Positions 164 through 32,703 of a stretch of 34,924 bases of DNA are shown one piece after another. The position numbers and the translations under genes were made by a program. How positions within the stretch are numbered: the first letter of the stretch is position 1; the number at the start of each line of letters is the position of its first letter. Source of the stretch: an uncultured Ruminococcus sp. (GTDB lineage Bacteria > Bacillota > Clostridia > Oscillospirales > Acutalibacteraceae); contig CACWRT010000015.1 in assembly GCA_902763365.1 (NCBI GenBank), positions 1 to 34,924 on the forward strand, in the 5' to 3' direction. The notes below the pieces were generated by a model. That model was not told the origin of the DNA. It made no database searches and saw nothing but the letters and a program-made list of their open reading frames with translations.

Positions 164-203
164 CGTTGATATTTTTCAATTATAATTTTAAACTAACCCG
201 GCG
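164..203 (+). repeat. 40-bp direct repeat, first copy
   Basis: Bases 164-203 recur at 360-399. The block is AT-rich and ends with the start of the GC-rich hairpin (CCGGCG) of the dispersed element, so both copies lead into element copies (197-303 and 393-460). Confidence 0.88.
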
Positions 204-303
204 AGCCGCCGGACCCTAAACGCGGGTATCGCTCCGCTTCGCATCCGCTCTGAACTCGCTGCTCAGGCTTTACTGCCCGCGTATCAAGCTTTTTAAGCAG
301 CTC
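197..303 (+). repeat. Dispersed palindromic element, full copy (C)
   Basis: A full-length copy. It starts with a perfect hairpin, CCGGCG-AGC-CGCCGG (198-212), followed by ACGCGGG (220-226), which is complementary to CCCGCGT (276-282), and then a T-run and a GCAGCTC tail. The distance from the first base of one outer arm to the last base of the other is 63 nt, exactly as in the copies at 3842-3948 and 32601-32703. Fragments lie at 1-44 and 119-157 (3' parts), and a decayed copy at 393-460. The family is not recognised; it behaves like a REP- or MITE-type element without coding capacity. Confidence 0.85.
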
Positions 304-359
304 AATGACAAATAAAACAAATGTTAGCTATGAAAAATGAGATGCCATGCTTTGAACTT
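260..359 (+). repeat. 100-bp direct repeat, second copy
   Basis: Identical by eye to 1-100. It is followed immediately by a second duplicated block (360-399, the same as 164-203), so 101-163 is missing between the two blocks in this copy. This fits a segmental duplication followed by an internal deletion, or the reverse. Confidence 0.9.
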
Positions 360-399
360 CGTTGATATTTTTCAATTATAATTTTAAACTAACCCGGCG
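360..399 (+). repeat. 40-bp direct repeat, second copy
   Basis: Second copy of 164-203. It directly abuts the second copy of the 100-bp repeat and leads into the divergent element copy at 393-460. Confidence 0.88.
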
Positions 400-460
400 T
401 GACGCCGGATCCTAAAACGCGGGGTTCGCTTCACTACGTTCCGCTCTGGGCTCATCGCTG
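393..460 (+). repeat. Dispersed palindromic element, decayed 5' copy (D)
   Basis: It has the 5' hairpin with loop TGA (CCGGCG-TGA-CGCCGG) and the left outer arm ACGCGGG, but the middle is diverged and the right arm CCCGCGT is missing. It is likely a truncated, mutated copy. Confidence 0.65.
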
Positions 461-549
461 CAACCTTTATTTGTCTCGGTTATAATTTTTTAATCGGCTG
501 ACACTTTTTTAATCCTCACCTCTGATTTTGTAATAATCGGTAGTTTACT

Positions 550-586
550 ATTTCATTATTCATTATTCACTATTCATTATTCATTG
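550..586. repeat. Heptamer array (TGAATAR)n
   Basis: On the minus strand the sequence is about five tandem seven-base units of TGAATAA or TGAATAG. It begins inside the last codons and stop of the decarboxylase-like gene. Similar short arrays occur at about 22294-22324 and 34801-34827, also beside gene ends. Confidence 0.75.
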
Positions 587-1917
587 ATTCCGTTGTTTAC
601 TACAAAAATGTTCTGAGAGCCGAGCTGTGAGATCTGAGCTTCATCTATCCTTTCTCCGGGCATAATAACAGGTACACCGGGTGGGCAAGGACATGATGTA
701 TCAGCCGAGATCATTCCAAGTGCATCCACAGCTTTTACCTTTTTACGTTTGGAAAGCATTGCACGCCTTACAGACATAACAGAAACGGGATGGTATATTT
801 CCTTTATAATATCTTTTTCTGAATCGTCTTTACCTGCCGGAAGATCATCTATTGCTTTTTTTACACGTTCAAGATCTGTATCAGTATTGAAGGGAGTAAT
901 GATCAATACTGCATTTTCACCGTCACAAAATTCACATTCTATTCCATGGGAATGAAAAAAAACCTGCTGTTCTTCTTCTCCGCAAAGACCTGCACGGGAT
1001 GTATTCAGTGTTAGTCTTAGCGGATCACATTCTCCTCTCGGTGAGATTATTCCCCTTTCAGAAGCATATTTTCTGAGTTTTTTGACTTTTATTTCACAAT
1101 CCCGATATTCGCTTATACCGTTTCCGTTTAATATGTAATCGGCACACAAAGCCATCGAGGACATTACGACATATGACGGACTGGTTGAAGCAAACAGGGA
1201 CATATATGATCTGCCGTTTTCCGCAAGTTCTTTTGTGCGAACATTAAGAAGTGCTCCGCCTGTCATTACAGGCAAAGTTTTATGCAAAGAACAGGCTGTC
1301 ATATCTGCGCCAAGAGTTATAGGATGTTTATTTTCCGACATAAAAGCAAGATGGGAACCATGAGCATTATCAACTAAAAGAATTGCATTATTCTCGTGAC
1401 AGATATCGGCTATTTGTTTTATATCGCTCATTTCTCCGTAATAGCTCGGAGAAGTAATATAGACAGAACGAATATCGGATTCTTTTTCAAATGCCGATCT
1501 TACATCATCGGGTTCTATCCTGCCGGTATATGACCTTTCGCCCTTCGGATATATCCAGACCGGGTCTATATCTAACAGTGCCATTGCGTTTACTGCGCTT
1601 CTGTGGGCATTTCTTGAACAGAGAAGCTTCCCCCCTCTTTCAAGGGCTGTTCTCATCATAGCCTGTATAGCAAGGGTACAGCCTCCTGCCGAAATAAATG
1701 TGTCGGCAGTGCCGTATATCTGCGAGAACATTTTTTCTGTCTCCCTGATTATCCCGTGAGCCTCAAACAATTCATCAGTGTCGGGAAGTTCCGTCAGGTC
1801 AAGCTTGATTAGATCCTGAGGAAGAAAACCGCTGCATTTATGCCCGGGCGTATGGAAAGAGGAATAACCCTTGCTTTCATATTCTTTAAGTCTTGTATAC
1901 AAATTATTATTTCTCAT
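577..1917 (-). CDS. PLP-dependent Orn/Lys/Arg decarboxylase-like protein
   Basis: Fold-type I PLP enzyme of the Orn/Lys/Arg decarboxylase family, probably acting on a basic amino acid to give a polyamine precursor; the substrate cannot be told from sequence. Visible motifs are TPGHK near the N-terminus, an SAGGCTLAIQ substrate/PLP-site stretch, DNAHGSHLAF (the PLP aspartate region) and SLHKTLP with the Schiff-base lysine. At 446 aa it is shorter than the large inducible decarboxylases and closer to the compact Gram-positive SpeA/YaaO type. The ATG at 1917 is preferred over a TTG two codons upstream. That ATG overlaps the last 11 bases of folC, so the two are probably translationally coupled. 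The stop lies inside a heptamer repeat. Confidence 0.85.
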   Translation of the reverse strand: MRNNNLYTRLKEYESKGYSSFHTPGHKCSGFLPQDLIKLDLTELPDTDELFEAHGIIRETEKMFSQIYGTADTFISAGGCTLAIQAMMRTALERGGKLLCSRNAHRSAVNAMALLDIDPVWIYPKGERSYTGRIEPDDVRSAFEKESDIRSVYITSPSYYGEMSDIKQIADICHENNAILLVDNAHGSHLAFMSENKHPITLGADMTACSLHKTLPVMTGGALLNVRTKELAENGRSYMSLFASTSPSYVVMSSMALCADYILNGNGISEYRDCEIKVKKLRKYASERGIISPRGECDPLRLTLNTSRAGLCGEEEQQVFFHSHGIECEFCDGENAVLIITPFNTDTDLERVKKAIDDLPAGKDDSEKDIIKEIYHPVSVMSVRRAMLSKRKKVKAVDALGMISADTSCPCPPGVPVIMPGERIDEAQISQLGSQNIFVVNNGINE

Positions 1918-3193
1918 CTTCAAGCACTATCCTTCTCATATCTGACGCAAGATAAAGCGAACCGAAGATCACAAGTGCGTCTGCGTTTTCCTCAAGATCA
2001 TTTTTTGCTTTTTTGTAGGCTTCATCCATGCTTTCACAGGCTGTTATATTTTTACAGTAAGGCAAGATAGTTTCGGCAAGTTCCTTTGAAGTCATTTTTC
2101 TCGGGTTATCAGGTTCTGTTGTATATATTCTGTCAAAAAGCGGCACAAGGCAGGACAAAGCATTTTTTACATCCTTATCCTTCAACATTCCCACAATTCC
2201 GATCATCTTTTTTCCGTCAAGATATTTTTTCAGGGCTATGGAAAGTGCCTTTGCCCCATCAGGATTGTGTGCTCCGTCGATGATCACAAGTGGGTTCTTT
2301 TTAAGCACTTCCATTCTTGCAGGAAAAGTAACTGCCGAAAAGCTTTGCTTTATAATATTATCGGTAATATCAAATCCTTTTTCTCTCAGTACAAAAAGAG
2401 TTTCGAGGGCGGTAACGGCATTTTTCACCATATGCTCACCCGAAAGCTTAATTTTCAGGTCAAGACTGTTATATCTGAATCTTGTGCCGAAAATATTGCT
2501 TTCAATGATTTCGGCTTTACGGCTGTCGGCAATTATAAGTCTGTTATTTTTTTCTGCGGAAGTCTTTTTTATAACATCTATCACTCCGTCATACTGGTCG
2601 GAATAAGCAACGCACACTCCATCTTTTTTTATTATACCGCATTTTTCATAGGCAATTTTTTCTAAAGTATCTCCAAGGATATTAGTGTGATCGAGAGAAA
2701 TTGAAGTTATTACTGAGCAAAGCGGTGTATCTATAATGTTTGTAGCGTCAAATCGTCCGCCGAGACCTGTTTCAAGCACAACTACATCACACTTTTCCAT
2801 AGCATACCACATAAGTGCAGCTGCGAAAATAAATTCAAATTCTGTAATTATCTTTCCTTCGCTTCGCATATCTTCTGCATAGGGCAATATTTTTTCTGTA
2901 ATATCCGCAAGGGTCTGTTTAGGTATCATTTTTCCGTCTATCGTAAATCTTTCACGAAATTCAAGTATGTACGGGGAGATGAATCTTCCTGTTTTATAGC
3001 CTGCCTCTGACAAGGTTTCGGCTATGAATGTACAGGTACTGCCCTTACCGTTTGTACCTGCTGCGTGAACGAATTTCAATCCCCTGTCGGGTGAACCGAG
3101 TCTGTCGCAAAGCTCTCTTATTCTTTCAAGACCCGGTTTTACACCGAATGTCAGCAGAGAATTTATTCTGCGGACTGCTTCATTATATTCCAT
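1907..3193 (-). CDS. folC: Folylpolyglutamate synthase / dihydrofolate synthase
   Basis: Adds glutamate to folates (and possibly to dihydropteroate) in the cytoplasm, using ATP. The 428-aa length is normal for FolC. The Mur-ligase-type ATP-binding loop reads AAGTNGKGST near residue 46, followed by the folate-binding SPYILEFRER stretch, ETGLGGRFDATN in the middle domain and DGAHNPDGAKAL at the start of the C-terminal domain. The start at 3193 has a good AAGGAAGG ribosome binding site. It lies upstream of, and overlaps, the decarboxylase-like gene in one operon, and is divergent from the YbjN-like gene. All expected FolC motifs are intact. Confidence 0.95.
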   Translation of the reverse strand: MEYNEAVRRINSLLTFGVKPGLERIRELCDRLGSPDRGLKFVHAAGTNGKGSTCTFIAETLSEAGYKTGRFISPYILEFRERFTIDGKMIPKQTLADITEKILPYAEDMRSEGKIITEFEFIFAAALMWYAMEKCDVVVLETGLGGRFDATNIIDTPLCSVITSISLDHTNILGDTLEKIAYEKCGIIKKDGVCVAYSDQYDGVIDVIKKTSAEKNNRLIIADSRKAEIIESNIFGTRFRYNSLDLKIKLSGEHMVKNAVTALETLFVLREKGFDITDNIIKQSFSAVTFPARMEVLKKNPLVIIDGAHNPDGAKALSIALKKYLDGKKMIGIVGMLKDKDVKNALSCLVPLFDRIYTTEPDNPRKMTSKELAETILPYCKNITACESMDEAYKKAKNDLEENADALVIFGSLYLASDMRRIVLEDEK

Positions 3194-3382
3194 TATTATT
3201 TTCCTTCCTTAAAAAATTCGGTTCAGAAAGTTATCACCACAAACCTATTTCTTTCTTTTTTTCATAAGCTATATTGTAAAATAGTATTAGCACAAGATGA
3301 CCGGATATGCAGCTTATTACTCATTGTACGATCATTGAAAAAGCAGATTTTCTGCTGACAATTTATAAGTGAGGTCCTGTTT

Positions 3383-3829
3383 ATGACAATTACTTCAACC
3401 AAATCGTGGAAACATTATATGCTTATATGTCATATTCTGTCTTCCAATGATATTCCTTTCATCCGTAACGATACTGCGCTGAGTATACGATGCAGTATCA
3501 GCAGCAGGGACGGAGATATGCTTTTCTTTTTCTCAGTTGACCCTTCAAAGATGCTGATAAACCTGTATTCTCCCTTGAATTTCAGAATAAAGGAAGAAGA
3601 CCGGGGGGAAATTGCCTTAGGGCTTTGTATGATTAACAACAAGCTCAGCCACGGCTGTTTTTATCTTGATACGGAAGACAACATTATATATTTCCGCATG
3701 ACAACAAGCTTTTACGAAACAAACCTTAATGAAATGCTTTTTGAATATATGCTGTCATCTGCTGCTGATTCGGTTGAAGAGTTTTCTGACGTCATTAAAA
3801 AGCTTACCGGCGAGACGCCGTCCCCCTAA
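3383..3829 (+). CDS. YbjN-like small protein
   Basis: 148 aa with no membrane segment. The pattern of a short beta-rich half followed by an ALGLCMINNKLSHGCFYLD-type helix and strand, then a C-terminal helical LSSAADSVEEFSDVI region, resembles the YbjN fold (a chaperone-like small-protein family). The molecular function is unknown. A ribosome binding site (GTGAGG) lies upstream of the ATG. The last codons (about KLTGETPSP) and the stop are supplied by the dispersed palindromic element that begins at 3806, so the native C-terminus was probably slightly different. The family call is by pattern only. Confidence 0.7.
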   Translation: MTITSTKSWKHYMLICHILSSNDIPFIRNDTALSIRCSISSRDGDMLFFFSVDPSKMLINLYSPLNFRIKEEDRGEIALGLCMINNKLSHGCFYLDTEDNIIYFRMTTSFYETNLNEMLFEYMLSSAADSVEEFSDVIKKLTGETPSP

Positions 3830-3841
3830 CGCGCCGGCGAG
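3806..3841 (+). repeat. Dispersed palindromic element, partial 5' copies (E1)
   Basis: A partial copy of the 5' hairpin (CCGGCG-AGA-CGCCG) followed by TCCCCCTAACGCG, and then an extra CCGGCGAG unit joined to the full copy at 3842. It looks like a stutter or tandem expansion of the 5' end of the element. It overlaps the 3' end of the YbjN-like gene. Confidence 0.75.
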
Positions 3842-3948
3842 CCGGCGAGCCGCCGGTCCCTTAACGCGGGTATCGCTCCGCTGCGCATCCGCTCTGAACT
3901 CGCCGCTCAGGCTATACTGCCCGCGTATCAGGGTTTTTTGAGCGGCTC
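3842..3948 (+). repeat. Dispersed palindromic element, full copy (E2)
   Basis: Full copy: hairpin CCGGCG-AGC-CGCCGG (3842-3856), outer arm ACGCGGG (3864-3870), right arm CCCGCGT (3920-3926), T-run, then AGCGGCTC. It lies in the transcribed sense direction just after the YbjN-like gene. The hairpins and T-run could act as a 3' end or terminator for that transcript. Confidence 0.85.
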
Positions 3949-4130
3949 ATTATTTAACTAAATAGTTAAAAAACTTTTAAAAGACAACTGCTCTGAACTC
4001 TTAGCTTTCCAATCTATGTATGTTTTGAATTAATCTAAAGAATTTTACTTCATCAGAATAAAACAGGAATAGTTATCAAACCTGCCGAATATTATTGAAC
4101 AGTTAAAAATGTTACAGGGCGGTGCTTTTT

Positions 4131-4928
4131 ATGTATGTGATTTTCGGAAAAAAATCTGTCACGGCAATTCTATGCGCGGTGGTTCTGATGACCGCCCTTA
4201 TAATTTCGGGTACGGGTATCAAGGACAATCTGATTTCCCCTGCTTCTGCCGATGTAAACTGGGGATTATCATACAACGAAGAAGGCAAGCCACCTACAGG
4301 AAATGCCTCGTCCGAAGAACTTCTCAAATACAACTCGTTCTACGTAGGCGACAGCACAAAAAAGAAGATATACCTCACTTTCGACGCAGGGTACGAAAAC
4401 GGGTATACCGAACATATTCTTGATGTACTCAAAAGCCACAATGTAAAGGCTGCTTTTTTCCTTGTAGGCAATTATCTCGAAACCTCTCCCGAGCTTGTCA
4501 AAAGGATGGTCACCGAAGGGCATACTGTCGGAAACCATACCATGACGCATCCCGATATGTCAAAAATAGCAGATGAGAAAAGCTTTTCAGCTGAGATATC
4601 GGGTGTTGAAGAGCTTTACAAGAAAATTACCGGACAGAATATGAAAAAATTCTATCGTCCGCCGCAGGGAAAATTCAGCACTGATAATCTTATGATGGCA
4701 AAATCACTCGGTTACAAAACGATTTTCTGGAGTCTTGCTTATGTTGACTGGTACAACGATGACCAGCCTACTGCCGATGAGGCTTTCTCCAAACTCATTC
4801 CGCGTATACACAACGGCGCGGTAGTTCTTCTGCACAGTACTTCCGAAACAAACAGCAAGATACTTGATGAGCTGCTTACAAAATGGGAAGAAATGGGTTT
4901 TTCTTTTGGTTCAATAGATGAACTGTGA
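4131..4928 (+). CDS. PdaA-like polysaccharide deacetylase
   Basis: A 265-aa NodB-fold deacetylase. An N-terminal hydrophobic segment (about residues 9-28) anchors or exports it. LTFDAGYENGYTEHILD (about 82-98) is the hallmark of the PdaA branch, which removes acetyl groups from N-acetylmuramic acid on the way to muramic delta-lactam in spore cortex. The metal-site GNHTMTH (His136, His140) and the RPPQGKFS motif are present. I prefer the ATG at 4131, with AGGGCGG at a normal distance, over the in-frame GTG at 4122 that lies inside that site. It stands alone between the repeat element and a convergent HAD gene. The sporulation role is inferred from the family. Confidence 0.88.
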   Translation: MYVIFGKKSVTAILCAVVLMTALIISGTGIKDNLISPASADVNWGLSYNEEGKPPTGNASSEELLKYNSFYVGDSTKKKIYLTFDAGYENGYTEHILDVLKSHNVKAAFFLVGNYLETSPELVKRMVTEGHTVGNHTMTHPDMSKIADEKSFSAEISGVEELYKKITGQNMKKFYRPPQGKFSTDNLMMAKSLGYKTIFWSLAYVDWYNDDQPTADEAFSKLIPRIHNGAVVLLHSTSETNSKILDELLTKWEEMGFSFGSIDEL

Positions 4929-4950
4929 TCGGACTTTCTTTTTAATAAAA

Positions 4951-5042
4951 CAATCCTGTCATTCTAAGAGAAAGCAATAACTTCTTTCACAAAACAGCTA
5001 AGAAAGATTCATCGTCGCTTTCATTCTCAGAATGACTGATTG
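4951..5042. repeat. Long imperfect inverted repeat between convergent genes
   Basis: The left arm (about 4951-4975) and right arm (about 5017-5042) are imperfect reverse complements; both carry CAATC and GTCATTCT. The arms surround about 40 bp. It sits between the convergent pdaA-like and HAD genes and may end both transcripts. The GTCATTCT core suggests a decayed palindromic dispersed element. Confidence 0.65.
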
Positions 5043-5094
5043 TTTAGCATTTTATCCCGAAAATGAGTTACGTGCATTAACCACCATAAAGTCC

Positions 5095-5823
5095 TCAGTT
5101 TTTGAACAAAGCATCCCTTGCATCAAAAAGGCTGCCGCTCATAATTTTATACTTAGCCAGCAGTTCGCCCTTTATTTCGGGGGAAATATCGGTATCAAGA
5201 TACAGAGAATCTATTCCTGCTTCATAAGAACCTCTTATATCTGTGATATAGTCATTTCCTATCATTATGGTCTCTTCGGGCTTCATACTAAACTTTTTCA
5301 TCATGCGTTCATAGAACATCCTGTCGGGCTTGGCACAGCCTTCGTCTGATGAGATCATTACATATTCGAATTCATCATAGATGCCAAGCATTCTGATCTC
5401 GGGTTCGGTAAAAATACGCTGAGCATTTGACAGAAGATATATCTTTCCTCCGTGACTGCGGATAGCTTCAAAAAGCTCATGTACTCCGTCATACAGTTTG
5501 ATAAACTTTATTGACAAAGCACGGAACACCCTGCCCGTATATGCTGCCATTTCATGAGAACATTCTACACCCTTGAGTCCGTAAAGTCTTATAAAAACAT
5601 TTTCAATAAGCGGTTCCGGGGTCGTGGAATACTTTTCTTTGGGAACTCTTTTCTTTTCATCTTCAACAAATTCGTCATACTTTTTATGAAGTTCCTTCGC
5701 CGTATAAGCTGCACCGCTGAGAGAATAAATAAGCGCCATTCTCTCCCATATCTCGTCACACCACTCATCTGTATTGATATCTATCAATGTACCGTACAGA
5801 TCAAACAAATAATTTTTATACAT
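5095..5823 (-). CDS. HAD-superfamily hydrolase
   Basis: A 242-aa HAD phosphatase of the subfamily with a helical cap. Motif I is FDLYGTLID, with Tyr in place of the second Asp, as seen in haloacid dehalogenase-like members; motif II is YLLSNA; the motif III lysine is in GCAKPDRMFYE; motif IV is MIGNDYITDIRG. It could act on a nucleotide or sugar phosphate (YjjG-like); the substrate is unknown. The start at MYKNYLFDLYG is chosen because GGAG lies nine bases upstream; the longer forms begin inside that site. It is monocistronic and convergent with the deacetylase gene. Confidence 0.85.
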   Translation of the reverse strand: MYKNYLFDLYGTLIDINTDEWCDEIWERMALIYSLSGAAYTAKELHKKYDEFVEDEKKRVPKEKYSTTPEPLIENVFIRLYGLKGVECSHEMAAYTGRVFRALSIKFIKLYDGVHELFEAIRSHGGKIYLLSNAQRIFTEPEIRMLGIYDEFEYVMISSDEGCAKPDRMFYERMMKKFSMKPEETIMIGNDYITDIRGSYEAGIDSLYLDTDISPEIKGELLAKYKIMSGSLFDARDALFKN

Positions 5824-5975
5824 ACTGATCATCTCCAATTCTTTTAATCGGTGTAAATAATACTATTAACATCCGAAGTCAAATAGTTTTTCTTTTCAGC
5901 AACGTTTTTCTTTTCAGCAACTATAATAAAAGTATAATATACCTATGTTAACTTTGCAATACTTTTAAGAAAAAA

Positions 5976-6003
5976 ATCCTGCCGATCAATGGACCGACAG
6001 GAT
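5976..6003 (-). terminator. Intrinsic terminator of the 156-aa membrane protein gene
   Basis: On the minus strand AUCCUGUCG pairs with CGGCAGGAU (one G-U pair) and a run of seven U follows. It lies a few bases after the stop at 6010. Confidence 0.88.
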
Positions 6004-6009
6004 AAATGT

Positions 6010-6480
6010 TTAGCCGCCAATATATGAACGATAGTCAAGCATTGTAAACGGATCTCTTGGTCTGCCAAAAGCATAAACTATATAGAAACCCTTAGGTGCC
6101 GAATCATGATGACTGAATCTGAGATCCTCAGGGAAATCATCACCAAATGTTGCCTTTGCCTGTTCCTGACTTACTACCTTTATATCCAGATCATCATCGG
6201 ACTTATCCCTGTAGTAACCAACAAGAGCACCGTAATCAATATCAGTCTCAAGAAGAATAGCGCCATAGAATTCCAGAGGACCGTTAGGATCGGAAAGCTT
6301 TCCTGTTCTTGAGATAGAACCGACTATTGCCGCTGTCTTTGTTCCGCTGGTAGGAGTTTCAATAGCTTTAAGCTTGCCCTCGATGTCAGCCGAAGTGATA
6401 TTATCAACCACAATACCTGCAACAAGTGCACCGACAATTGCAAGGATCAGAATACCGACAAGTACTTTTACAAATTTCAT
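6010..6480 (-). CDS. Membrane-anchored protein of unknown function
   Basis: 156 aa, not recognised. One hydrophobic segment at residues 5-27 is followed by a soluble outward-facing domain rich in Asp and Gly. No lipobox and no known catalytic motif is seen. It has its own promoter (TTGAAA-17-TATAAT at 6531-6559), a GGGG-type ribosome binding site and a strong terminator, so it is a single-gene transcript. It is divergent from the small 82-aa gene. Conservation cannot be judged here, but the isolated, well-formed expression signals support a real gene. Confidence 0.75.
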   Translation of the reverse strand: MKFVKVLVGILILAIVGALVAGIVVDNITSADIEGKLKAIETPTSGTKTAAIVGSISRTGKLSDPNGPLEFYGAILLETDIDYGALVGYYRDKSDDDLDIKVVSQEQAKATFGDDFPEDLRFSHHDSAPKGFYIVYAFGRPRDPFTMLDYRSYIGG

Positions 6481-6530
6481 ATATATTCCCCTTTTTTATT
6501 TTTTCCGTACAGTTATACGGCTTTTTATTA

Positions 6531-6559
6531 ATTATACAACCATGTTACAATTTTTTCAA
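6531..6559 (-). promoter_or_regulatory. Sigma-A-type promoter for the 156-aa protein gene
   Basis: On the minus strand: -35 TTGAAA (6554-6559), a 17-bp spacer, -10 TATAAT (6531-6536). It is back to back with the promoter of the plus-strand gene at 6595-6623. Confidence 0.8.
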
Positions 6560-6594
6560 GTATAAGTTTATCTTGTAATACAATTTCACTATTA

Positions 6595-6623
6595 TTGACA
6601 AACTCTCTTTCCTGCACTATAAT
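6595..6623 (+). promoter_or_regulatory. Perfect-consensus sigma-A promoter
   Basis: TTGACA (6595-6600), a 17-bp spacer and TATAAT (6618-6623) match the consensus exactly, about 40 bases upstream of the 82-aa gene. Strong expression is expected. Confidence 0.88.
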
Positions 6624-6662
6624 TAAATATAACAGTTCATCAAAAGAAAGGAGATTATAATT

Positions 6663-6911
6663 ATGGGACTTCTCGATCAGGTAAAATCCGTTGCAGGAAA
6701 CGAAAATGTCAAAAATCAGGTAATGAACGCTGTTGGTTCTGCCGCAAAGGATGAAAACATTGTAAATCAGGTCAAATCCGCTGCTGCGGGTGCTGCCGCT
6801 AAGGTTGCAGGCGACAAAGTTGACAAAAAGACTGTTACCGATACGGTAAACAACCTTGTAGATCAGGCTGCGGGCTTTGTAAACAGCAAGCAGGATGAAA
6901 AAAAGCAGTAA
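6663..6911 (+). CDS. Small Ala/Val/Lys-rich helical protein
   Basis: 82 aa, not recognised by name. It is soluble, rich in Ala, Val, Asn and Lys, and predicted to be mostly amphipathic helix. It has a weak internal repeat: NENVKNQVMNAV and DENIVNQVKSAA. It resembles small stress- or LEA-like bacterial helical proteins only in composition. It has a perfect-consensus promoter, an AAAGGAGA ribosome binding site and a strong terminator, so it is probably an abundant protein. It is convergent with the membrane protein gene at 6951. Confidence 0.8.
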   Translation: MGLLDQVKSVAGNENVKNQVMNAVGSAAKDENIVNQVKSAAAGAAAKVAGDKVDKKTVTDTVNNLVDQAAGFVNSKQDEKKQ

Positions 6912-6915
6912 AAAA

Positions 6916-6946: not shown

Positions 6947-6950
6947 CTTT

Positions 6951-22199: not shown

Positions 22200-22331
22200 T
22201 TTTTATAGTGTATAGTTTTTTGTTAATGGTTTTCAGATTGATTGCACTAATAGTTTCATAAAACTATTAAGTTAATATAAGCAAGACGTCCCACGTCAAT
22301 CACTATCCACTATTCATTATTTACCGTTTCC

Positions 22332-25437: not shown

Positions 25438-28400
25438 TTATCCGTTCCCGGTAAGGTCATAGAAAGCTTCTATGCGTGCTTCCTCTTCGGAAAGTCCCTT
25501 ACCCTCGTATTCTGCTATTTTTTCGGTAATTTTCTTATAATCATGCGGGATTATCTTCTTGAACTTCGGCAGATAATTCTGAAAATCATCAAGTATTCTC
25601 CTGCCTTTTTCCGAACCTGTCTCCTTTATATGCTCTTCTATCATAGATTTCAGTTTTTCGATATCGGCTTTTTCACTCAGTTCGGATACTTCCACAAGCT
25701 CCTTATTAAGCTTTCTGTACAAGTCCCTGTCCTCATCAAGAACGTAGGCTATACCGCCTGACATACCTGCGGCAAAGTTTTTGCCTGTTTTGCCAAGTAC
25801 AACGGCATATCCGCCCGTCATATATTCACAGCCGTGATCTCCTACACCCTCAACTACAGCGGACGCACCTGAATTGCGCACGCAGAATCTTTCACCTGCA
25901 ACACCGTTTATAAACGCCTTTCCGCTTGTGGCACCGTAAAGCGCTACATTTCCGATAATGATATTATCCTCGGCTTTGAAACGGCTTTCTTTTGGCGGAT
26001 AAACAACAAGCTTTCCTCCGGACAGACCCTTACCGAAATAGTCATTGCTTTCACCCTCAAGCTCAAGCGTAACTCCCGAAGGAATAAATGCGCCGAAGCT
26101 CTGACCTCCTGCGCCCTTGCAGCAGATCTTATATGTATCTTCCTTGAGAGACTTGCCGAACTTCCTTGTAACTTCCGAACCGAAGGCTGTTCCAAGAGAA
26201 CGGTCGGTATTTTTAATATCAAGCGTCATACTCTTTGCATTGCCCTTTTTGAATGAGGCTCCCAGCTTCTTTTCTATCTCTTTTTCGTCAAGGGTTTCAG
26301 ACAGGCAGAAATCATAGACATTCTTATCGTTATAAACTATCTTTTCCTTTAGATCGCAGTCCAGTATTGCGGAAAGGTCTATCTTCTTTTCCCTGTCACT
26401 CAGACCATCCCTCACTTTCAGCAGATCCGTTCTGCCCACAAGCTCATCAACCGTGCGGACACCAAGTCTTGCCATATATTCACGCAGCTCCTGCGCAATA
26501 AATCTCATAAAGTTCACTACATATTCAGGCTTTCCGCTGAAACGTTTTCTGAGTTCGGGATTCTGTGTGGCAACACCAAAGGGACAGGTATCAAGATTGC
26601 ACACTCTCATCATTGCACAGCCTAAGGTTACAAGCGGTGCAGTTGCAAAACCGAATTCCTCCGCGCCGAGAATAGCTGCTACAGCAACGTCACGGCCTGT
26701 CATAAGCTTACCGTCGGTTTCTATAACTACCCTGTTTCTCAGTCCGTTCATGATAAGCGTCTGGTGCGCTTCCGCAAGACCAAGCTCCCATGGCAGACCC
26801 GCATTATGTATTGAGCTTCCCGGCGCTGCGCCTGTACCTCCGTCATAGCCGGAGATCAGTATTACCTGCGCTCCTGCCTTGGCAACACCTGCGGCTACCG
26901 TTCCGACCCCACATTCCGAAACGAGTTTTACGGATATGCGTGACTTTTTGTTAGCATTTTTCAGGTCATATATAAGCTGTGCAAGGTCTTCTATTGAATA
27001 AATATCATGATGCGGCGGCGGGGATATCAGTGATACACCGGGGGTAGAATGTCTTGTTGCGGCGATCCACGGATATACCTTTTTGCCGGGAAGATGTCCG
27101 CCCTCGCCGGGCTTCGCGCCCTGAGCCATCTTTATCTGTATCTCATCAGCCGAATTCAGATATTCGGATGTTACTCCGAAACGTCCCGAAGCCACCTGTT
27201 TTATTGCAGAACATCTGTTCTTTGCAGTTCCTTTTGTCAGCAGACGCTCACTGCTTTCGCCGCCTTCGCCTGAATTTGACTTTCCGTGAAGCAGGTTCAT
27301 AGCAAGGGCTAAGGCCTCGTGCGCTTCCTGTGAGATCGAACCATATGACATTGCACCCGTCTTGAATCTCTTTACAATAGAATCAACGCTTTCCACCTCA
27401 TCAAGAGGAACGCTTTCGGTGGGATAGTTGAAATCAAACAGTCCTCTTATATGTACAGGTCTTATCTCCTCATTTATTCTGCGGGTATAATCCTTGAAAA
27501 GCTCATAGCTGCCTGTACGTGCGGCATACTGTAAAGTATGTATCGTAACCGGATCATACAGATGCTCTTCCCTGCCGCTGCGCAGCTTATGCTCACCTCT
27601 TGATACTATCTCGGAATTTGTTTCAAGGCTCAGCGGGTCAAATGCCGCTGTATGAAGCCGATCGGCATTTTCTTCTATATCTTCAAGAGTTATACCGCCT
27701 ATGCGGCTTACTGTACCTGTGAAGTACTCATCAATAACTTCTTTGCCGATACCCACAGCTTCAAATATCTGTGAGCCCTGATATGACTGTATTGTAGAAA
27801 TACCCATCTTTGACGCTATCTTTACAATGCCGTGGAGAACTGCTCTGTTATAGTCGTCAACAGCAGCATAATAGTCCTTATCAAGCAAGTCGTCATGTAT
27901 AAGCTCATGTATTGTTTCCTGCGCAAGGTAGGGGTTTACTGCGCTTGCTCCGTATCCTAAAAGCGCCGCAAAATGATGTACCTCTCTTGGCTCACCGCTT
28001 TCAAGTATCACTGCAAGGGATGTCCTTCTCTTAGTTGCAACAAGATGCCTGTGCAAAGCTGATACAGCAAGCAGCGAGGGTATTGCAACATGGTTCTCGT
28101 CAACCCCTCTGTCGGACAGGATAAGTATATTTGCTCCGTCATTATATGCCTTATCCGCCTCAAGGTAAAGACGCTTTATAGCTTTTGAAAGCCTTGTGTT
28201 CTTGTAGTACAATATGGGAATAACAGCTACCTTGAATCCGCTTACCTTCATATTCTTGAGCTTCAGTATATCTGTGGAGGTAAGTATGGGATTGTTAACT
28301 TTTATTACCTTACAATTTTCGGGACGTTCTTCAAGAATGTTTCCGTCCTCACCGATATATACTGTGGTAGATGTAACTACCTCTTCCCTTATTGCGTCTA

Positions 28401-29964
28401 TAGGCGGATTCGTTACCTGCGCAAAAAGCTGCTTGAAATAATTGAACAGCGGCTGAGGCTGATCAGACAGCACTGCAAGCGGCGTATCGACTCCCATTGC
28501 TGTAATAGGTTCACTGCCGTTTTCCGCCATTGGCAGTATCTCTTTCATTATCTCTTCATATGTATAGCCAAATGCTTTCTGAAGCTTCTTGCGTTCTTCA
28601 CGGTGATGCTCTTCAACCTTGGAGTTGGGGATCCTGAGTTCACTGAGCTTGACCAGATTACTGTCAAGCCACTCACCGTAGGGCTGACGGGATGCGTAAT
28701 ACTCTTTCAGTTCGTCATCATCTATAACTCTTCCCTTAACAGTATCCACAAGAAGCATTTTGCCCGGACGGAGTCTTTCTTTTGTTACTATTCTCTCGGC
28801 AGGAACAGGAAGCGCTCCTACCTCTGAAGAAAGGATAAGATAACCGTCGTCAGTTATATAATATCTTGAGGGACGCAGACCGTTTCTGTCCAGAACAGCG
28901 CCCATGATATCGCCGTCTGAAAACAGTATGGACGCAGGTCCGTCCCAAGGCTCCATCATTGTGGCATAGTACTGATAAAAGTCCTTTTTTGTGCGGCTCA
29001 TGGTATGATTTCTGTCCCAGGGTTCGGGTATGGTTATCATTACTGCCAGCGGCAGATCCATTCCGCTCATAACCAAGAACTCAAGCGTATTGTCAAGCAT
29101 CGCGGAGTCAGAACCTTCGGTATTAACTACGGGTATCACCTTATCAAGATCGCCCTTGAGATGCTCGGAACGCATTATTTCTTCTCTTGCAAGCATTTTA
29201 TCGGCATTGCCTTTTATAGTATTTATTTCGCCGTTATGAACTATCATCCTGTTGGGATGAGCTCTCTGCCAGCTGGGATTTGTGTTTGTTGAAAAACGCG
29301 AATGTACCATCGCTATCGCCGATTCAAAATCCTCGTCACGAAGATCTGTAAAGAACCTTCTCAGATCACCGACAAGGAACATTCCTTTATATACTATGGT
29401 TCTGCATGACAGAGAAACAACATAGGTATCCTCGTTGCTCTGTTCAAATTCACGCCTTGCAACATATAATCTTCGGTCAAAGTCTATGCCCTTTTTAACT
29501 CCATCAGGTCTTTTGATAAAGCACTGCTGTATGTCAGGCATACAGTCATAGGCTCTCTGACCTATCACAGATGTATCGGAAGGCACTTTTCTCCAGCCCA
29601 GTATCTCAAGTCCCTCTTTGCGGGCTATTATTTCAAACATTTTCTTTGCCTGATTCCTCAGAAGCTCTTTCTGCGGAAAGAAAAACATTCCGACCGCATA
29701 ATCCCTCTCTTCACCTAATATGATGCCTTCCCGGGCTGCTGCCTTTTTAAAGAACTTATGGGATATCTGTACAAGAATACCTACGCCGTCGCCTGTTTTG
29801 CCGTCAGCGTCCTTGCCTGCACGATGCTCAAGTGTTTCTACAATAGTAAGTGCGTCATTTACGGTTTTATGTGATCTGATACCTTTGATATTGACTACTG
29901 CTCCTATTCCGCAGTTGTCATGCTCAAAGGATGGGTCGTAAAGACTGTGTCCGGGGTTAATCAT
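25438..29964 (-). CDS. gltB: Glutamate synthase large subunit
   Basis: Makes two glutamates from glutamine and 2-oxoglutarate. 1508 aa, full length. A 17-residue propeptide ends before Cys18 (DN-CGIGAVVNIKG), the glutaminase nucleophile of the N-terminal GATase II domain. A central domain, the FMN-binding synthase domain (PGEGGHLPGKKVYPWIA ... SGYDGGTGAAPGSSI) and a Cys cluster (CAMMRVCNLDTCPFG) for the 3Fe-4S centre follow. The C-terminal GXGXG beta-helix repeats are present. The start at MINPGHSLYD has AAAGGACG upstream; the 14-residue longer form begins before it. A 5' leader of about 280 nt precedes the gene. Confidence 0.96.
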   Translation of the reverse strand: MINPGHSLYDPSFEHDNCGIGAVVNIKGIRSHKTVNDALTIVETLEHRAGKDADGKTGDGVGILVQISHKFFKKAAAREGIILGEERDYAVGMFFFPQKELLRNQAKKMFEIIARKEGLEILGWRKVPSDTSVIGQRAYDCMPDIQQCFIKRPDGVKKGIDFDRRLYVARREFEQSNEDTYVVSLSCRTIVYKGMFLVGDLRRFFTDLRDEDFESAIAMVHSRFSTNTNPSWQRAHPNRMIVHNGEINTIKGNADKMLAREEIMRSEHLKGDLDKVIPVVNTEGSDSAMLDNTLEFLVMSGMDLPLAVMITIPEPWDRNHTMSRTKKDFYQYYATMMEPWDGPASILFSDGDIMGAVLDRNGLRPSRYYITDDGYLILSSEVGALPVPAERIVTKERLRPGKMLLVDTVKGRVIDDDELKEYYASRQPYGEWLDSNLVKLSELRIPNSKVEEHHREERKKLQKAFGYTYEEIMKEILPMAENGSEPITAMGVDTPLAVLSDQPQPLFNYFKQLFAQVTNPPIDAIREEVVTSTTVYIGEDGNILEERPENCKVIKVNNPILTSTDILKLKNMKVSGFKVAVIPILYYKNTRLSKAIKRLYLEADKAYNDGANILILSDRGVDENHVAIPSLLAVSALHRHLVATKRRTSLAVILESGEPREVHHFAALLGYGASAVNPYLAQETIHELIHDDLLDKDYYAAVDDYNRAVLHGIVKIASKMGISTIQSYQGSQIFEAVGIGKEVIDEYFTGTVSRIGGITLEDIEENADRLHTAAFDPLSLETNSEIVSRGEHKLRSGREEHLYDPVTIHTLQYAARTGSYELFKDYTRRINEEIRPVHIRGLFDFNYPTESVPLDEVESVDSIVKRFKTGAMSYGSISQEAHEALALAMNLLHGKSNSGEGGESSERLLTKGTAKNRCSAIKQVASGRFGVTSEYLNSADEIQIKMAQGAKPGEGGHLPGKKVYPWIAATRHSTPGVSLISPPPHHDIYSIEDLAQLIYDLKNANKKSRISVKLVSECGVGTVAAGVAKAGAQVILISGYDGGTGAAPGSSIHNAGLPWELGLAEAHQTLIMNGLRNRVVIETDGKLMTGRDVAVAAILGAEEFGFATAPLVTLGCAMMRVCNLDTCPFGVATQNPELRKRFSGKPEYVVNFMRFIAQELREYMARLGVRTVDELVGRTDLLKVRDGLSDREKKIDLSAILDCDLKEKIVYNDKNVYDFCLSETLDEKEIEKKLGASFKKGNAKSMTLDIKNTDRSLGTAFGSEVTRKFGKSLKEDTYKICCKGAGGQSFGAFIPSGVTLELEGESNDYFGKGLSGGKLVVYPPKESRFKAEDNIIIGNVALYGATSGKAFINGVAGERFCVRNSGASAVVEGVGDHGCEYMTGGYAVVLGKTGKNFAAGMSGGIAYVLDEDRDLYRKLNKELVEVSELSEKADIEKLKSMIEEHIKETGSEKGRRILDDFQNYLPKFKKIIPHDYKKITEKIAEYEGKGLSEEEARIEAFYDLTGNG

Positions 29965-30089
29965 ATAGATCGTCCTTTCTTTTGTCTGATTGTTTCTGCT
30001 TTTCATCTTTACCTTTTGAGTAATTTCAGTTTTCTGTGTCTCCGACTAAAGTATGTTTAGCTGCATTTCAAAGCCAAAAAACTTAAAAT

Positions 30090-30133
30090 CCGCATAAAAG
30101 TCATAAAAAGCAAATAATAAGATAATTATGCGG
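30090..30133 (-). promoter_or_regulatory. Terminator-like hairpin in the gltB leader
   Basis: On the minus strand CCGCATAA (30133-30126) is complementary to TTATGCGG (30097-30090), followed by ATTTTAAGTTTTTT. It lies between the promoter and the gltB ribosome binding site, so it could attenuate transcription. The loop is 28 nt and AT-rich. Confidence 0.5.
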
Positions 30134-30139
30134 GTCAAG

Positions 30140-30241
30140 GGGCTCGAGCTCCTTGCAGGGTGCAGGGACAGCGCCCCTGCCCGCCGGAGGCATTTAAAAC
30201 AGAACTGACCAATGCGAGCGCTGTTACCAAAAGCCCGCCGG
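30140..30241. repeat. GC-rich element in the gltB leader
   Basis: A GC-rich island in an AT-rich region. On the plus strand GCCCGCCGG occurs twice (30179-30187 and 30233-30241), and GCAGGG/CCCTGC can pair near 30161-30180. An open frame on the minus strand through it has no ribosome binding site. It may be the remnant of another dispersed repeat; the family is not identified. Confidence 0.5.
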
Positions 30242-30254
30242 TGCTATAGTGGTT

Positions 30255-30283
30255 ATTATAAAACGTTGACAAGGATTTGTCAA
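30255..30283 (-). promoter_or_regulatory. Perfect-consensus promoter of gltBD
   Basis: On the minus strand: TTGACA (30278-30283), 17-bp spacer, TATAAT (30255-30260). Transcription would start near 30248, giving a leader of about 280 nt before the gltB ATG. Confidence 0.88.
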
Positions 30284-30395
30284 TAGAAAAATGCAACTTT
30301 TTTATATTATCATTCATTTTTAAGCCTTTTTTAGCAAATAACCAAGGTTTTTGAATCTATTTTGCAAGAAGAATAAAAAAAAATGCAAAAAGGTA

Positions 30396-30424
30396 TTGAC
30401 AAATCGTTTCAGAAGGAGTATACT
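30396..30424 (+). promoter_or_regulatory. Promoter of glnN
   Basis: TTGACA (30396-30401), 17-bp spacer, TATACT (30419-30424), giving a leader of about 77 nt. Confidence 0.85.
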
Positions 30425-30432
30425 TCAACTAT

Positions 30433-30466
30433 CGCAGCAAGGGCGCTGTAAGCAATGGGGCTTACA
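30433..30466 (+). promoter_or_regulatory. glnN leader hairpin with AATGGG loop
   Basis: AGGGCGCTGTAAGC pairs with GCTTACAGCGTCCT (14 bp, one G-U) around a six-base loop AATGGG, followed by TATCTGTTTTC. The loop has A at position 1 and G at position 4, the signature of RNA hairpins bound by ANTAR-domain antiterminators, which control nitrogen genes in many bacteria. Only one such hairpin is seen, while the classic target has two. Confidence 0.55.
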
Positions 30467-30507
30467 GCGTCCTTATCTGTTTTCAAATTATTACAGGAGT
30501 GATAAAT

Positions 30508-32601
30508 ATGGCAAAAGTTACAGAGATCTTCGGAAGTATGGTATTCAACGACCGAAAAATGCAGGAGCGTCTGCCCCACAGTACTTACAAGGCTCTTAAA
30601 AAAACTATTAAAAACGGCGAGCCCCTTGACATCAGCGTTGCAAATGCAGTTGCAAATGCAATGAAGGACTGGGCAGTCGAAATGGGATGCACTCACTACA
30701 CACACTGGTTCCAGCCTATGACAGGGGTAACCGCAGAAAAGCACGACAGCTTTATCTGCCCCACCTCAGAAGGCGAGATCATTATGGAATTTTCGGGCAA
30801 AGAGCTTATCAAAGGTGAGCCGGACGCATCAAGCTTCCCCTCGGGCGGTATTCGCGCAACATTTGAAGCCAGAGGCTATACAACATGGGATCCGACTTCA
30901 CCCGCATTTATCCGCGATAAAACATTATATATTCCAACAGCATTCTGCTCATATACAGGAGAGGTGCTGGATAAGAAAACCCCCCTGCTGCGTTCTATGG
31001 AAAGACTGAGTAATGTTGCAGTAAAGCTTCTGCATCTTCTCGGAAAGAAAGATGTTACAAGAGTTACCACTACAGTAGGTCCCGAGCAGGAATACTTCCT
31101 TATTGATAAGACAATGTATGACAAACGCCCCGACCTTATCTACACAGGCCGCACATTATTCGGTGCGCCAGCTCCAAAGGGTCAGGAGCTTGAGGATCAT
31201 TATTTCGGCTCAATAAAAACAAGGGTTTCCGATTTCATGAATGACCTTGACGAGCAGCTCTGGAAGCTTGGTATACTTGCAAAAACAAAGCATAATGAAG
31301 TAGCTCCTTCACAGCATGAGCTTGCGCCTGTATTTACTACTTCAAACATAGCTACCGACCACAATGAACTTACAATGGAAGTCATGAAGAAAACTGCCGA
31401 AAAACATGGTCTTGTATGTCTTCTCCACGAAAAGCCCTTTGCAGGTGTAAACGGTTCGGGCAAGCATAATAACTGGTCTATCTCAACAAATACAGGCGAA
31501 AATCTTCTTGACCCCGGCAAGCATCCCGAAGATAATCTGCAATTCCAGCTTTTCCTTGCAGCTGTAGTAAAAGCAGTGCATGAATATCAGGATCTTCTCA
31601 GACTTACCGTTGCATCAGCAGGAAATGACCACAGACTTGGCGCTAATGAAGCTCCGCCTGCTATCATATCCATGTATTTGGGCGACGACCTGGGTGCGCT
31701 TGTAGATTCCGTTATAAACGGTACAAAGTTCACAAGCAGCGGAAAACCCGATATGCTGACAGGTGTTGACGTTCTCCCCGACTTCAAAAAAGACACCTCG
31801 GACAGAAACCGTACTTCTCCGTTTGCATTTACGGGCAACAAGTTTGAATTCAGGGCGCTGGGCTCTTCCCTGAACATTGCCTGCCCCAACTATATGCTCA
31901 ATACAATGGTAGCAGAAGAACTTTCACAGTTCTATGACGAGCTGAAGGATTCACAAGACCTTGAAACAGCACTGAAAGAGCTTATTAAACGTACATTTAC
32001 GGAACATCAGAATATCATCTTCAACGGCGACAACTATTCCGATGAATGGGTTGCAGAAGCCGAAAGAAGAGGTCTTTGCAATTACCGTTCCCTGCCCGAG
32101 GCAATGGCGCACTACGTTGACAGGAAAAATATCGACCTCTTTGTTAAAAACGGCATTGTATCCGAAGCCGAGATACGCGCAAGATATGAGATCGAGCTGG
32201 AACACTATTACAAGCAGCTCAGGATCGAAGCGCTTACCATGGTCGATATGGCGGAAAAGAATATTACTCCCGCAGTTATCGCCTTTATAAACAAGCTCAG
32301 CGACGCTGCGTCAGCGAAAAAGTCTCTTAACAGCAGCTACTCAATTTATGCAGAAACAAAGCTTATAGAAAAGCTTTCAGATGAACTTGAAGCTTTCGTA
32401 AAGAAAACAGACGAACTAAAAGTTTCCATTGATAAGGCAGCAGATCTCGAAAACGATAATCTTACCCGCGCAAAATATTATCGTGAAACCGTATTCGGTC
32501 TTATGAACGAACTTCGTTCGATCGGCGACTCAATGGAGAGCAGTACTTCCGCAAAATACTGGCCCTACCCATCCTACGGCGAGATCCTCTTCAGCGTTTA
32601 A
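30508..32601 (+). CDS. glnN: Type III glutamine synthetase
   Basis: ATP-dependent ammonia assimilation into glutamine. 697 aa, the size of the GlnN (GSIII) class and far larger than GSI. Seen: AVEMGCTHYTHWFQPMTG near the N-terminus, the FEARGYTTWDPTSP stretch, VGPEQEYFLID with metal-binding glutamates, HNEVAPSQHELAP, and the class signature LHEKPFAGVNGSGKHNNWS followed by DHRLGANEAPPAI. The start at MAKVTEIFGS has AGGAG eight bases upstream. It is divergent from gltBD and upstream of the Amt-PII gene. The dispersed palindromic element begins on the last base of its stop codon. Confidence 0.96.
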   Translation: MAKVTEIFGSMVFNDRKMQERLPHSTYKALKKTIKNGEPLDISVANAVANAMKDWAVEMGCTHYTHWFQPMTGVTAEKHDSFICPTSEGEIIMEFSGKELIKGEPDASSFPSGGIRATFEARGYTTWDPTSPAFIRDKTLYIPTAFCSYTGEVLDKKTPLLRSMERLSNVAVKLLHLLGKKDVTRVTTTVGPEQEYFLIDKTMYDKRPDLIYTGRTLFGAPAPKGQELEDHYFGSIKTRVSDFMNDLDEQLWKLGILAKTKHNEVAPSQHELAPVFTTSNIATDHNELTMEVMKKTAEKHGLVCLLHEKPFAGVNGSGKHNNWSISTNTGENLLDPGKHPEDNLQFQLFLAAVVKAVHEYQDLLRLTVASAGNDHRLGANEAPPAIISMYLGDDLGALVDSVINGTKFTSSGKPDMLTGVDVLPDFKKDTSDRNRTSPFAFTGNKFEFRALGSSLNIACPNYMLNTMVAEELSQFYDELKDSQDLETALKELIKRTFTEHQNIIFNGDNYSDEWVAEAERRGLCNYRSLPEAMAHYVDRKNIDLFVKNGIVSEAEIRARYEIELEHYYKQLRIEALTMVDMAEKNITPAVIAFINKLSDAASAKKSLNSSYSIYAETKLIEKLSDELEAFVKKTDELKVSIDKAADLENDNLTRAKYYRETVFGLMNELRSIGDSMESSTSAKYWPYPSYGEILFSV

Positions 32602-32703
32602 CCGGCGAGCCGCCGGTCGCTTAACGCGGGTATCGCTCCGCTTCGCATCCGCTCTTAACTCGTTGTTCAGGGTTCACTGCCCGCGTATCAAGCTTTATAT
32701 GCG
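32601..32703 (+). repeat. Dispersed palindromic element, full copy (F)
   Basis: Begins on the last base of the glnN stop codon. 5' hairpin CCGGCG-AGC-CGCCGG (32602-32616), outer arms ACGCGGG (32624-32630) and CCCGCGT (32680-32686), then AAGCTTTATATGCGGC. Same orientation as glnN. The 63-nt arm-to-arm length matches the other full copies; base changes lie mainly inside. Confidence 0.85.

What the first reader, a model, noticed from the sequence alone, without database searches (positions are those of the whole stretch)
197..32703. A dispersed ~105-bp palindromic element with a fixed 63-nt core
Three full copies (197-303, 3842-3948, 32601-32703) plus fragments or decayed copies (1-44, 119-157, 393-460, 3806-3841) share a 5' hairpin CCGGCG-AGC-CGCCGG, an outer pair of arms ACGCGGG/CCCGCGT spanning exactly 63 nt, and a T-rich 3' tail. 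All are in the same orientation in the window and two follow genes in the sense direction. This is a REP-, MITE- or structured-RNA-like family that I do not recognise.
Basis: seen in the sequence. Interest (0 to 1): 0.7.

Follow-up and report, generated by a model that had tools for sequence, protein, structure and literature searches.

The report
Hairpin repeats parked beside bacterial promoters
A short DNA repeat with a hairpin at one end is scattered in well over a hundred copies through this bacterium and occurs in most sampled species of its genus, and in this species it usually sits hairpin-first just upstream of a gene's promoter, unlike the pneumococcal repeats it most resembles.

Summary
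In detail: three copies (198-303, 3842-3948, 32602-32705) share a 15-nt hairpin and arms spanning exactly 63 nt. A covariance model finds at least 150 copies in the 3.3-Mb genome (limit reached) and matches at E <= 0.001 in 50 of 64 genus genomes (38 at E <= 1e-5), but none at E <= 1e-5 in 244 other genomes of the order, where fewer candidates were scored. Copies lie between genes, non-coding, in mosaic head-to-tail arrays that break the assembly. Covariation strongly supports the hairpin, less so the 63-nt arms. No Rfam match; Y1 transposases and reverse transcriptases do not track it. The surprise is placement. In this genome the hairpin end faces a gene start in about 70 of 75 arrays; where a good promoter is found (53 of 78) the -35 box is 0-35 nt away, median 11. 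Best reading: a genus-specific, non-autonomous BOX/REP-like repeat family with an orientation-specific promoter-edge distribution, helper and function unknown. The rule weakens in relatives and looks reversed in one (G019).

The parts
1..44 (+). 3' part of an element cut by the contig start
   Evidence: 95.5% identical to positions 63-106 of the 106-nt query; 1-100 is identical to 260-359
119..157 (+). isolated tail module (CCCGCGTATCAGGCTTTTTTGGCGGTTC)
   Evidence: 129-157 is a member of repeat family D3
158..197 (+). spacer (S1 type, ending ATTATAATTTTAAACTAAC) that links units head-to-tail
   Evidence: repeated at 358-392 (D5); the same type links units in many arrays of the genome
198..303 (+). 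full element: hairpin 198-212, left arm 220-226, right arm 276-282, T-rich tail
304..392 (+). spacer between units (S2-type sequence followed by S1-type sequence)
   Evidence: 304-359 identical to 45-100; 358-392 repeats 162-196
393..507 (+). terminal unit variant (head CCGGCGTGACGCCGG, then GGGGTTCGCTTCACTACG...CTCTGGGCTC...ATCGGCTGACAC); right end approximate, set by eye
   Evidence: a similar terminal module closes arrays elsewhere
3806..3841 (+). partial head units abutting the next element; they contain the stop codon (3827-3829) of the upstream YbjN-like ORF
   Evidence: sequence; ORF 3383-3829; Pfam PF10722
3842..3948 (+). full element
32602..32705 (+). full element directly after the stop codon of glutamine synthetase III
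   Evidence: no element at the site in the 29 relative loci fetched

Best explanation
It is a genus-restricted family of small, non-coding, non-autonomous interspersed repeats, of the same broad kind as pneumococcal BOX and enteric REP/BIME elements. The unit is a 15-nt hairpin head, a 12-nt linker ending in ACGCG (or ATTCGCG in relatives), a core TCGCTNCGCT...CGCTCTG, a right arm CCCGCGT, a T-rich tail and a linker often ending TTTTACACTAAC. Units join head-to-tail, and the head side often collects extra copies of its own first few nt, mostly 6 or 27. Shown: high copy number, restriction to the genus within what was sampled, mosaic arrays, intergenic position, hairpin kept by compensatory change, absence from one tested site in 29 relatives, and in this genome a strong preference for lying hairpin-first, within 35 nt upstream of the -35 box wherever a good promoter was found. 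Inferred: the repeats spread by transposition or a similar copying process in which the folded hairpin (as single-stranded DNA or RNA) is recognised by an enzyme supplied in trans; local growth occurs by duplication at short GCG-type homologies; the promoter-edge position reflects either targeting to promoter DNA or survival and use of copies placed there. No mobilising enzyme is identified.
For: At least 150 matches in the own genome: all 150 scored of 1,271 first-look candidates passed E <= 0.001. 50 of 64 genus genomes match at E <= 0.001, 38 of them at E <= 1e-5 by my count of the list; 0 of 244 other order genomes at E <= 1e-5, 18 of those listed being in the same family. Hairpin: all 6 pairs have changes on both sides, 99.3% of cells paired; for the whole 13-pair structure 161 doubly changed cells against 55.7 +- 7.8 in shuffles (117 distinct rows). 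Own arrays: head-side gene points away in 71 of 75 by a crude gene caller, 70 of 75 after correcting one known miss in the window; tail-side genes 26 versus 27; tandem contexts 19 versus 3 (4 after correction); convergent 0 of 42 classified on both sides. Near-consensus -35/-10 on the opposite strand beside the head in 53 of 78, against 6 of 78 on the same strand and 5.9% of mononucleotide shuffles; head edge to -35 median 11, range 0-35 nt in those 53. Promoters without elements have a median of 162 nt between -35 and the upstream gene (49 promoters). Partial head units in 37 of 78 arrays; 52 pieces, of which 21 are 27 nt and 16 are 6 nt. Head-side genes are functionally mixed: 20 scanned, 17 with Pfam hits at E <= 1e-6. 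Glutamine synthetase site: no element in 29 relative loci.
Against: The orientation rule is weaker in relatives: head faces gene start 41, gene end 16, among 66 single-orientation clusters; 12 clusters over all loci were of mixed orientation and left out. In G019 it looks reversed: 2 start, 7 end, leaving out two mixed clusters, one hit overlapping a called gene and one without a head-side gene. In 400 kb of the own genome not chosen for elements the ratio is 10 to 2; with the window added 11 to 3, or 10 to 4 after correcting the missed gene. 25 of 78 arrays have no promoter match at the threshold, both window copies among them. Most loci were picked from the best-scoring matches. The order search scored only 16 candidates per genome against 61 in the genus search, so its negatives are weaker than they look, and divergent copies could be missed. 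No empty site, target-site duplication or helper enzyme was found. Genes were called with a simple codon-usage script that found 302 genes in 435 kb, so some were missed. A few of the 5- and 6-nt partial heads may be chance.
Confidence: 0.62

Rival explanations
1. Co-opted cis-regulatory module: the hairpin end lies where the RNA polymerase alpha subunits and class I activators bind (established knowledge, recalled), and acts as an insulator, supercoil buffer or protein binding site for the adjacent promoter, so position is kept by selection rather than made by targeting.
For: Tight 0-35 nt spacing to the -35 box in 53 of 78 arrays and the 70 of 75 orientation in the own genome. Two orthologous genes carry a hairpin head beside a -35 box in two species each: L134/L183 (90% identity) and L028/L064 (87%).
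Against: Adjacent genes share no evident function. Of 15 own head-side genes (68 queried) with a tblastn hit in 400 kb of G019, one (L119/L235, 60% identity) has a head-facing element upstream there. Hairpin sequence differs widely between species. The rule looks reversed in G019.
Confidence: 0.2
2. REP/BIME elements moved by a RAYT (REP-associated tyrosine transposase).
For: Short hairpin units in mosaic clusters at high copy number, compensatory changes in the stem, two Y1_Tnp genes in the genome; some other high-copy genomes (G019, G027, G077) also have Y1.
Against: Both own Y1 genes sit next to tnpB-like ORFs, as in ordinary IS605 elements (family read from the ORFs by eye). 17 of 64 genus genomes have Y1; G066, G067, G012, G024, G078 and G085 (91-100% complete) have 24 to 61 matches and no Y1, while G002 and G017 have Y1 and no match. 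No GTAG-type head motif, by eye.
Confidence: 0.06
3. MITE: a deletion derivative of a DDE-type or other insertion sequence that supplies transposase in trans.
For: Size, copy number, intergenic position; in G019 hairpin units stand at both ends in inverted orientation (by eye).
Against: No terminal inverted repeats seen in this species, no target-site duplication seen, no parent insertion sequence identified (DDE families were not searched); mosaic truncated heads would be unusual for MITEs (recalled).
Confidence: 0.15
4. A structured RNA gene, riboswitch or 3'-UTR/terminator element.
For: Covarying hairpin, T-rich tail, two window copies directly downstream of genes.
Against: Most arrays lie upstream of a gene start and antisense to it, so they are not in its mRNA leader. 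Folding z-scores of the three copies are only -1.2 to -1.9. The alignment fold of the 37 copies keeps the head hairpin but not the 63-nt arms. No Rfam match in the window or in 8 element loci. The alternative terminator-like stem CCGCTCA/TGAGCGG shows no covariation: 334 of 399 cells paired, shuffled mean 335 (57 own copies). No clear promoter excess reading into the element (7.7% against 5.9%).
Confidence: 0.07

Closest known systems
BOX elements of Streptococcus pneumoniae (boxA-boxB-boxC)
   Same: Modular, high-copy, intergenic, predicted to fold as stem-loops, internal modules vary in number (passages of PMC3049150).
   Different: BOX is over-represented between convergent genes and only slightly between divergent ones (PMC3049150); here 0 of 42 own arrays classified on both sides are convergent and heads face gene starts. 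No BOX sequence was compared directly; host order different.
REP/BIME elements with RAYT transposases
   Same: Short palindromic units, over 100 copies, mosaic clusters, palindrome kept through complementary mutations (passages of PMC2817692).
   Different: No RAYT found, no GTAG-type head, no alternating orientation in the own arrays read; Y1 transposases do not track the element.
Correia elements (CREE/NEMIS) of Neisseria
   Same: About 100-150 nt (recalled) and mapped mostly immediately upstream of genes (passages of PMC10969869).
   Different: Correia elements carry their own promoters and terminal inverted repeats (recalled); here -35 and -10 lie in variable flanking DNA at variable distance, and one promoter (L117/L220) is recognisable, by eye, in G019 without the element.
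ERIC / MIRU-type repeats
   Same: About 100-nt intergenic imperfect palindromes (recalled).
   Different: Compared from memory only; no sequence search against them was made apart from Rfam.

Membership tests
Small interspersed intergenic repeats (general class) | Many near-identical non-coding copies at unrelated intergenic sites | tested here: met
   At least 150 copies; 0 of 86 own arrays overlap a called gene (the caller missed some genes, and one partial head does reach into the YbjN-like ORF); flanks differ
Small interspersed intergenic repeats (general class) | Stem-loop under structural constraint | tested here: met
   Helix 1: 99.3% of cells paired, 6 of 6 pairs with changes on both sides
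REP/RAYT | Cognate RAYT gene, flanked by inverted REPs, whose presence tracks REP abundance | tested here: not met
REP/RAYT | Conserved GT(A/G)G-type tetranucleotide at the head | tested here: not met
   Sequence left of the head is variable, read by eye
BOX | Composite of 5' module, variable number of internal modules, 3' module | tested here: met
   Arrays: repeated units, several closed by a distinct terminal module (architecture only, not homology)
BOX | Sequence homology to boxA/B/C | not tested
   No BOX sequence was compared
MITE | Terminal inverted repeats | tested here: not met
   Own-genome units read by eye have different ends; inverted hairpin units at both ends were seen only in relatives such as G019
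MITE | Target-site duplication and a parent insertion sequence | tested here: inconclusive
   No empty site could be aligned; flanks of relatives too diverged in the 10 cases looked at
Structured RNA family in Rfam 15 | Match to a curated covariance model | tested here: not met
   window: two tRNAs only; 8 element loci, E <= 0.1: none
Promoter-targeted mobile element | Insertions clustered at a fixed place and orientation relative to promoters | tested here: met
   Own genome; weaker in relatives and reversed in G019
Promoter-targeted mobile element | Insertion machinery that recognises promoter-bound protein or DNA | not testable with these tools
   No helper known

The most novel reading that the evidence does not exclude
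The family is mobilised by an unidentified enzyme that folds or recognises the hairpin and inserts it, in one orientation, at the upstream edge of promoters occupied by RNA polymerase: a bacterial counterpart of the promoter-targeted Ty1/Ty3 retrotransposons of yeast (recalled). It would leave a genome in which a large share of promoters (53 seen among the 78 arrays read) carry a GC-rich hairpin array at about -45.
Probability: 0.22. Interest if true: 0.82.

Novelty: new variant of a known kind. Interest (0 to 1): 0.56.

Why it matters
Interspersed repeats such as pneumococcal BOX are found preferentially where they should do least harm, between convergent genes (PMC3049150, passages). This family does the reverse in one species: it crowds the upstream edge of promoters in a fixed orientation. 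Either it is targeted there, which to my knowledge would be a new insertion rule for bacteria, or it is kept there, which would mean a repeat has become a common promoter-upstream module. Both are testable. Practically, it may also explain part of why this genome assembles into hundreds of pieces: many of its contigs end inside the arrays.

Tried and rejected
RAYT/IS200-type helper: rejected on distribution and gene neighbourhood. Reverse transcriptase helper, suggested by heads with a constant start and variable end: the single RVT_1 gene of the own genome looks like a group II intron maturase (my reading of the ORF), and G066 (98% complete, 52 matches) has neither RVT_1 nor Y1. Partial heads are explained more simply by duplication at GCG/CG junctions. 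Other transposase families were not searched. Rfam: none. Terminator-like alternative stem: no covariation. S1 spacer as an inward promoter: TATAAT is present but no -35 at a normal distance (by eye), and same-strand promoters are not in clear excess. Phages (one blastn search with window 3806-3948) and viral contigs (one exact pattern): no hit. Plasmids and E. coli genomes were not searched. Orthologous conservation of positions: mostly absent. In one search the downstream sequences printed for minus-strand loci are wrong; only the nhmmer hit lists, and the printed sequences of plus-strand loci, were used. In one search one genome of another family (G055) gave a 23-nt match at E 6.6e-4, which I take as chance. 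The genus name and 'Ruminococcus' were not verified.
Full report
WHAT IS THERE. The second and third copies are 88% and 89% identical to the first over 104 nt, so chance is not in question. The window is a whole contig (C15) of a 3.31-Mb genome in 211 contigs.

HOW COMMON. A BLASTN search scored 40 of 281 candidates in the own genome and listed 58 matches. A covariance model (R1) built from 37 copies of this genome and relatives returned 150 matches, its limit, so the true number is probably higher. By my count of that list, 41 of the 150 begin within 200 nt of a contig start: arrays break the assembly. In the genus, 50 of 64 genomes match at E <= 0.001, 38 of them at E <= 1e-5 (at most 61 candidates scored per genome, E-values rough). 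In a sample of 245 genomes of the order only the own genome matches at E <= 1e-5 (at most 16 candidates scored per genome, strict filters), so the restriction to the genus is well supported for close copies and less so for distant ones. There is no Rfam match (window; 8 element loci), no phage match (one query) and no exact-pattern match in viral contigs.

ANATOMY. Full units run from the hairpin to a linker ending TTTTACACTAAC (about 153 nt by eye; S2 and S3 linkers ending GCGAAGC also occur). Units are joined head-to-tail, and an array can be closed by a longer terminal unit that shares the head but has a different 3' part. On the head side, 37 of 78 own arrays carry further pieces that begin like the head and stop short: 52 pieces, 21 of them 27 nt, 16 of 6 nt, 5 of 11 nt. 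The junctions mostly read CG or GC followed by CC, which fits duplication between short GCG repeats. In relatives the head unit is often again 27 nt, with other stems (GCGGAG-TGC-CTCCGC, CCGGCA-AGC-TGCCGG, GCAGCG-TGA-CGCTGC).

STRUCTURE. Over 117 distinct relative copies every one of the six hairpin pairs has changes on both sides and 99.3% of cells pair; the outer arms pair in 83%. The alignment was fitted to the model, which favours pairing. Related sequences can also exceed shuffles without structure, but sliding the partner by 1-3 columns drops pairing from 91% to 30-53%. In the 37-sequence alignment the covariation was slight (4 doubly changed cells), and RNAalifold kept the head hairpin but replaced the 63-nt arms by an inner stem; single folds differ between copies. 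So the hairpin is kept as a structure while its sequence is free to change, and the 63-nt pairing is not established. A hairpin kept by shape is expected if it acts folded, as single-stranded DNA or RNA, and less expected of an ordinary repressor or activator site. An alternative terminator-like stem has no support.

PLACEMENT. In the own genome 86 distinct arrays were read. The gene on the head side points away from the array in 71 of 75 assignable cases. One of these is wrong: the script missed the YbjN-like ORF at 3383-3829, so 70 of 75 is the better figure (binomial p about 1e-15). Eight of the 71, that one included, lie more than 400 nt away; without them it is 63 against 5. On the tail side there is no preference (26 and 27). 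Of 42 arrays with both neighbours called, 20 are divergent (19 after the correction), 19 tandem with the head at a gene start, 3 tandem with the head at a gene end (4 after the correction), none convergent. Because tails facing a gene start are tolerated in divergent pairs, the bias looks like an attraction of heads to gene starts rather than an avoidance by tails. The opposite strand beside the head matches -35/-10 at 10 or more of 12.5 points in 53 of 78 arrays, against 6 of 78 read on the other strand and 5.9% of mononucleotide shuffles. After removing partial heads, the -35 box is 0-35 nt from the edge in those 53, median 11. In 435 kb of the same genome (20 stretches of 20 kb plus the window), 49 promoters without elements have a median of 162 nt between -35 and the upstream gene, and a uniformly placed edge would fall within 35 nt about 26% of the time, or 10% if weighted by length. 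The promoters look like host sequence: flanks differ from copy to copy, and one promoter (L117) is recognisable by eye in its G019 counterpart that has no element (1 clear case among 10 looked at, automatic alignment score low).

LIMITS OF THAT RULE. Relatives: head towards gene start 41, towards gene end 16. G081 and G066 follow it (9 to 2, 6 to 1); G019 does not (2 to 7). Among relative arrays whose head faces a gene start, 21 of 54 have a good promoter beside the head against 6 of 54 on the other strand; among the 25 facing a gene end, 2 against 0. In 400 kb of own genome not chosen for elements, which hold older and weaker copies, 10 of 12 heads face a gene start (window left out; with it 11 of 14, or 10 of 14 corrected). 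Most other loci were taken from the best-scoring matches.

CONSERVED OR MOVING. At the glutamine synthetase-ammonium transporter site the element is in this genome and in none of the 29 relative loci fetched, out of 63 other genomes (one sub-threshold hit, E 0.56, lies inside a gene). Of 68 own head-side genes, 15 had a tblastn hit in 400 kb of G019 and one of these (60% identity) has a head-facing element there (6 of the 15 are below 60% identity and may be paralogues). Two orthologue pairs do share the arrangement with other species (L134/L183 at 90%, L028/L064 at 87%), roughly what chance would give for these sample sizes by my estimate. So positions turn over, as in a mobile family, and species carry different consensus sequences.

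HELPER. Two Y1 transposase genes lie beside tnpB-like ORFs, i.e. ordinary IS605-like elements. Across the genus neither Y1 (17 of 64) nor RVT_1 (33 of 64) tracks the element; G066 has 52 matches and neither. No other candidate family was tested.

COMPARISON. Architecturally the nearest relative is pneumococcal BOX (passages of PMC3049150): composite, variable in module number. But BOX is over-represented between convergent genes, the opposite of what is seen here. REP/BIME elements come with a cognate RAYT (passages of PMC2817692), which is not met. Correia elements also lie upstream of genes but bring their own promoters (passages of PMC10969869). Paper searches gave no title or abstract describing this family (listings; open-access PMC only; I read no paper in full).

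VERDICT. A real repeat family, genus-specific within what was sampled and absent from Rfam; ordinary as a class, unusual in its promoter-edge, one-way placement in this species. Mechanism of spread unknown.

Noticed in passing
window 3806-3829: A partial head unit supplies the last codons and the stop codon of a YbjN-like ORF (3383-3829), so element debris appears to have become coding sequence.
   Followed up: partly
window 551-591, 22300-22331, 34796-34830: A second dispersed repeat: T-rich runs of TTCATTATTCACTATTCATTATTCATT in both orientations; a similar run lies right of the array in L012.
   Followed up: no
L154, L053 (G019): In G019 hairpin-plus-TTCGCG units stand at both ends of a longer element in inverted orientation, like terminal inverted repeats, and the promoter-edge rule seems lost.
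   Followed up: partly
L039, L040, L140 (own genome): Long spacers between elements contain near-repeats of GAGCTCTTAGCTCTGAGCT type, often ending GCGAAGC.
   Followed up: no
L204, L213 (downstream of glutamine synthetase) and window about 32836-32895: The glutamine synthetase-ammonium transporter gap of some relatives holds an inverted repeat of GGCGTGTAT...ATACACGCC type; the window has a similar one downstream of the element. Possibly a regulatory hairpin of the ammonium transporter gene.
   Followed up: no
L071 and L072 (own genome contigs C168, C85): Two IS605-like tnpA-tnpB loci; the one on C85 has a decayed element copy about 0.2 kb downstream of tnpB.
   Followed up: partly
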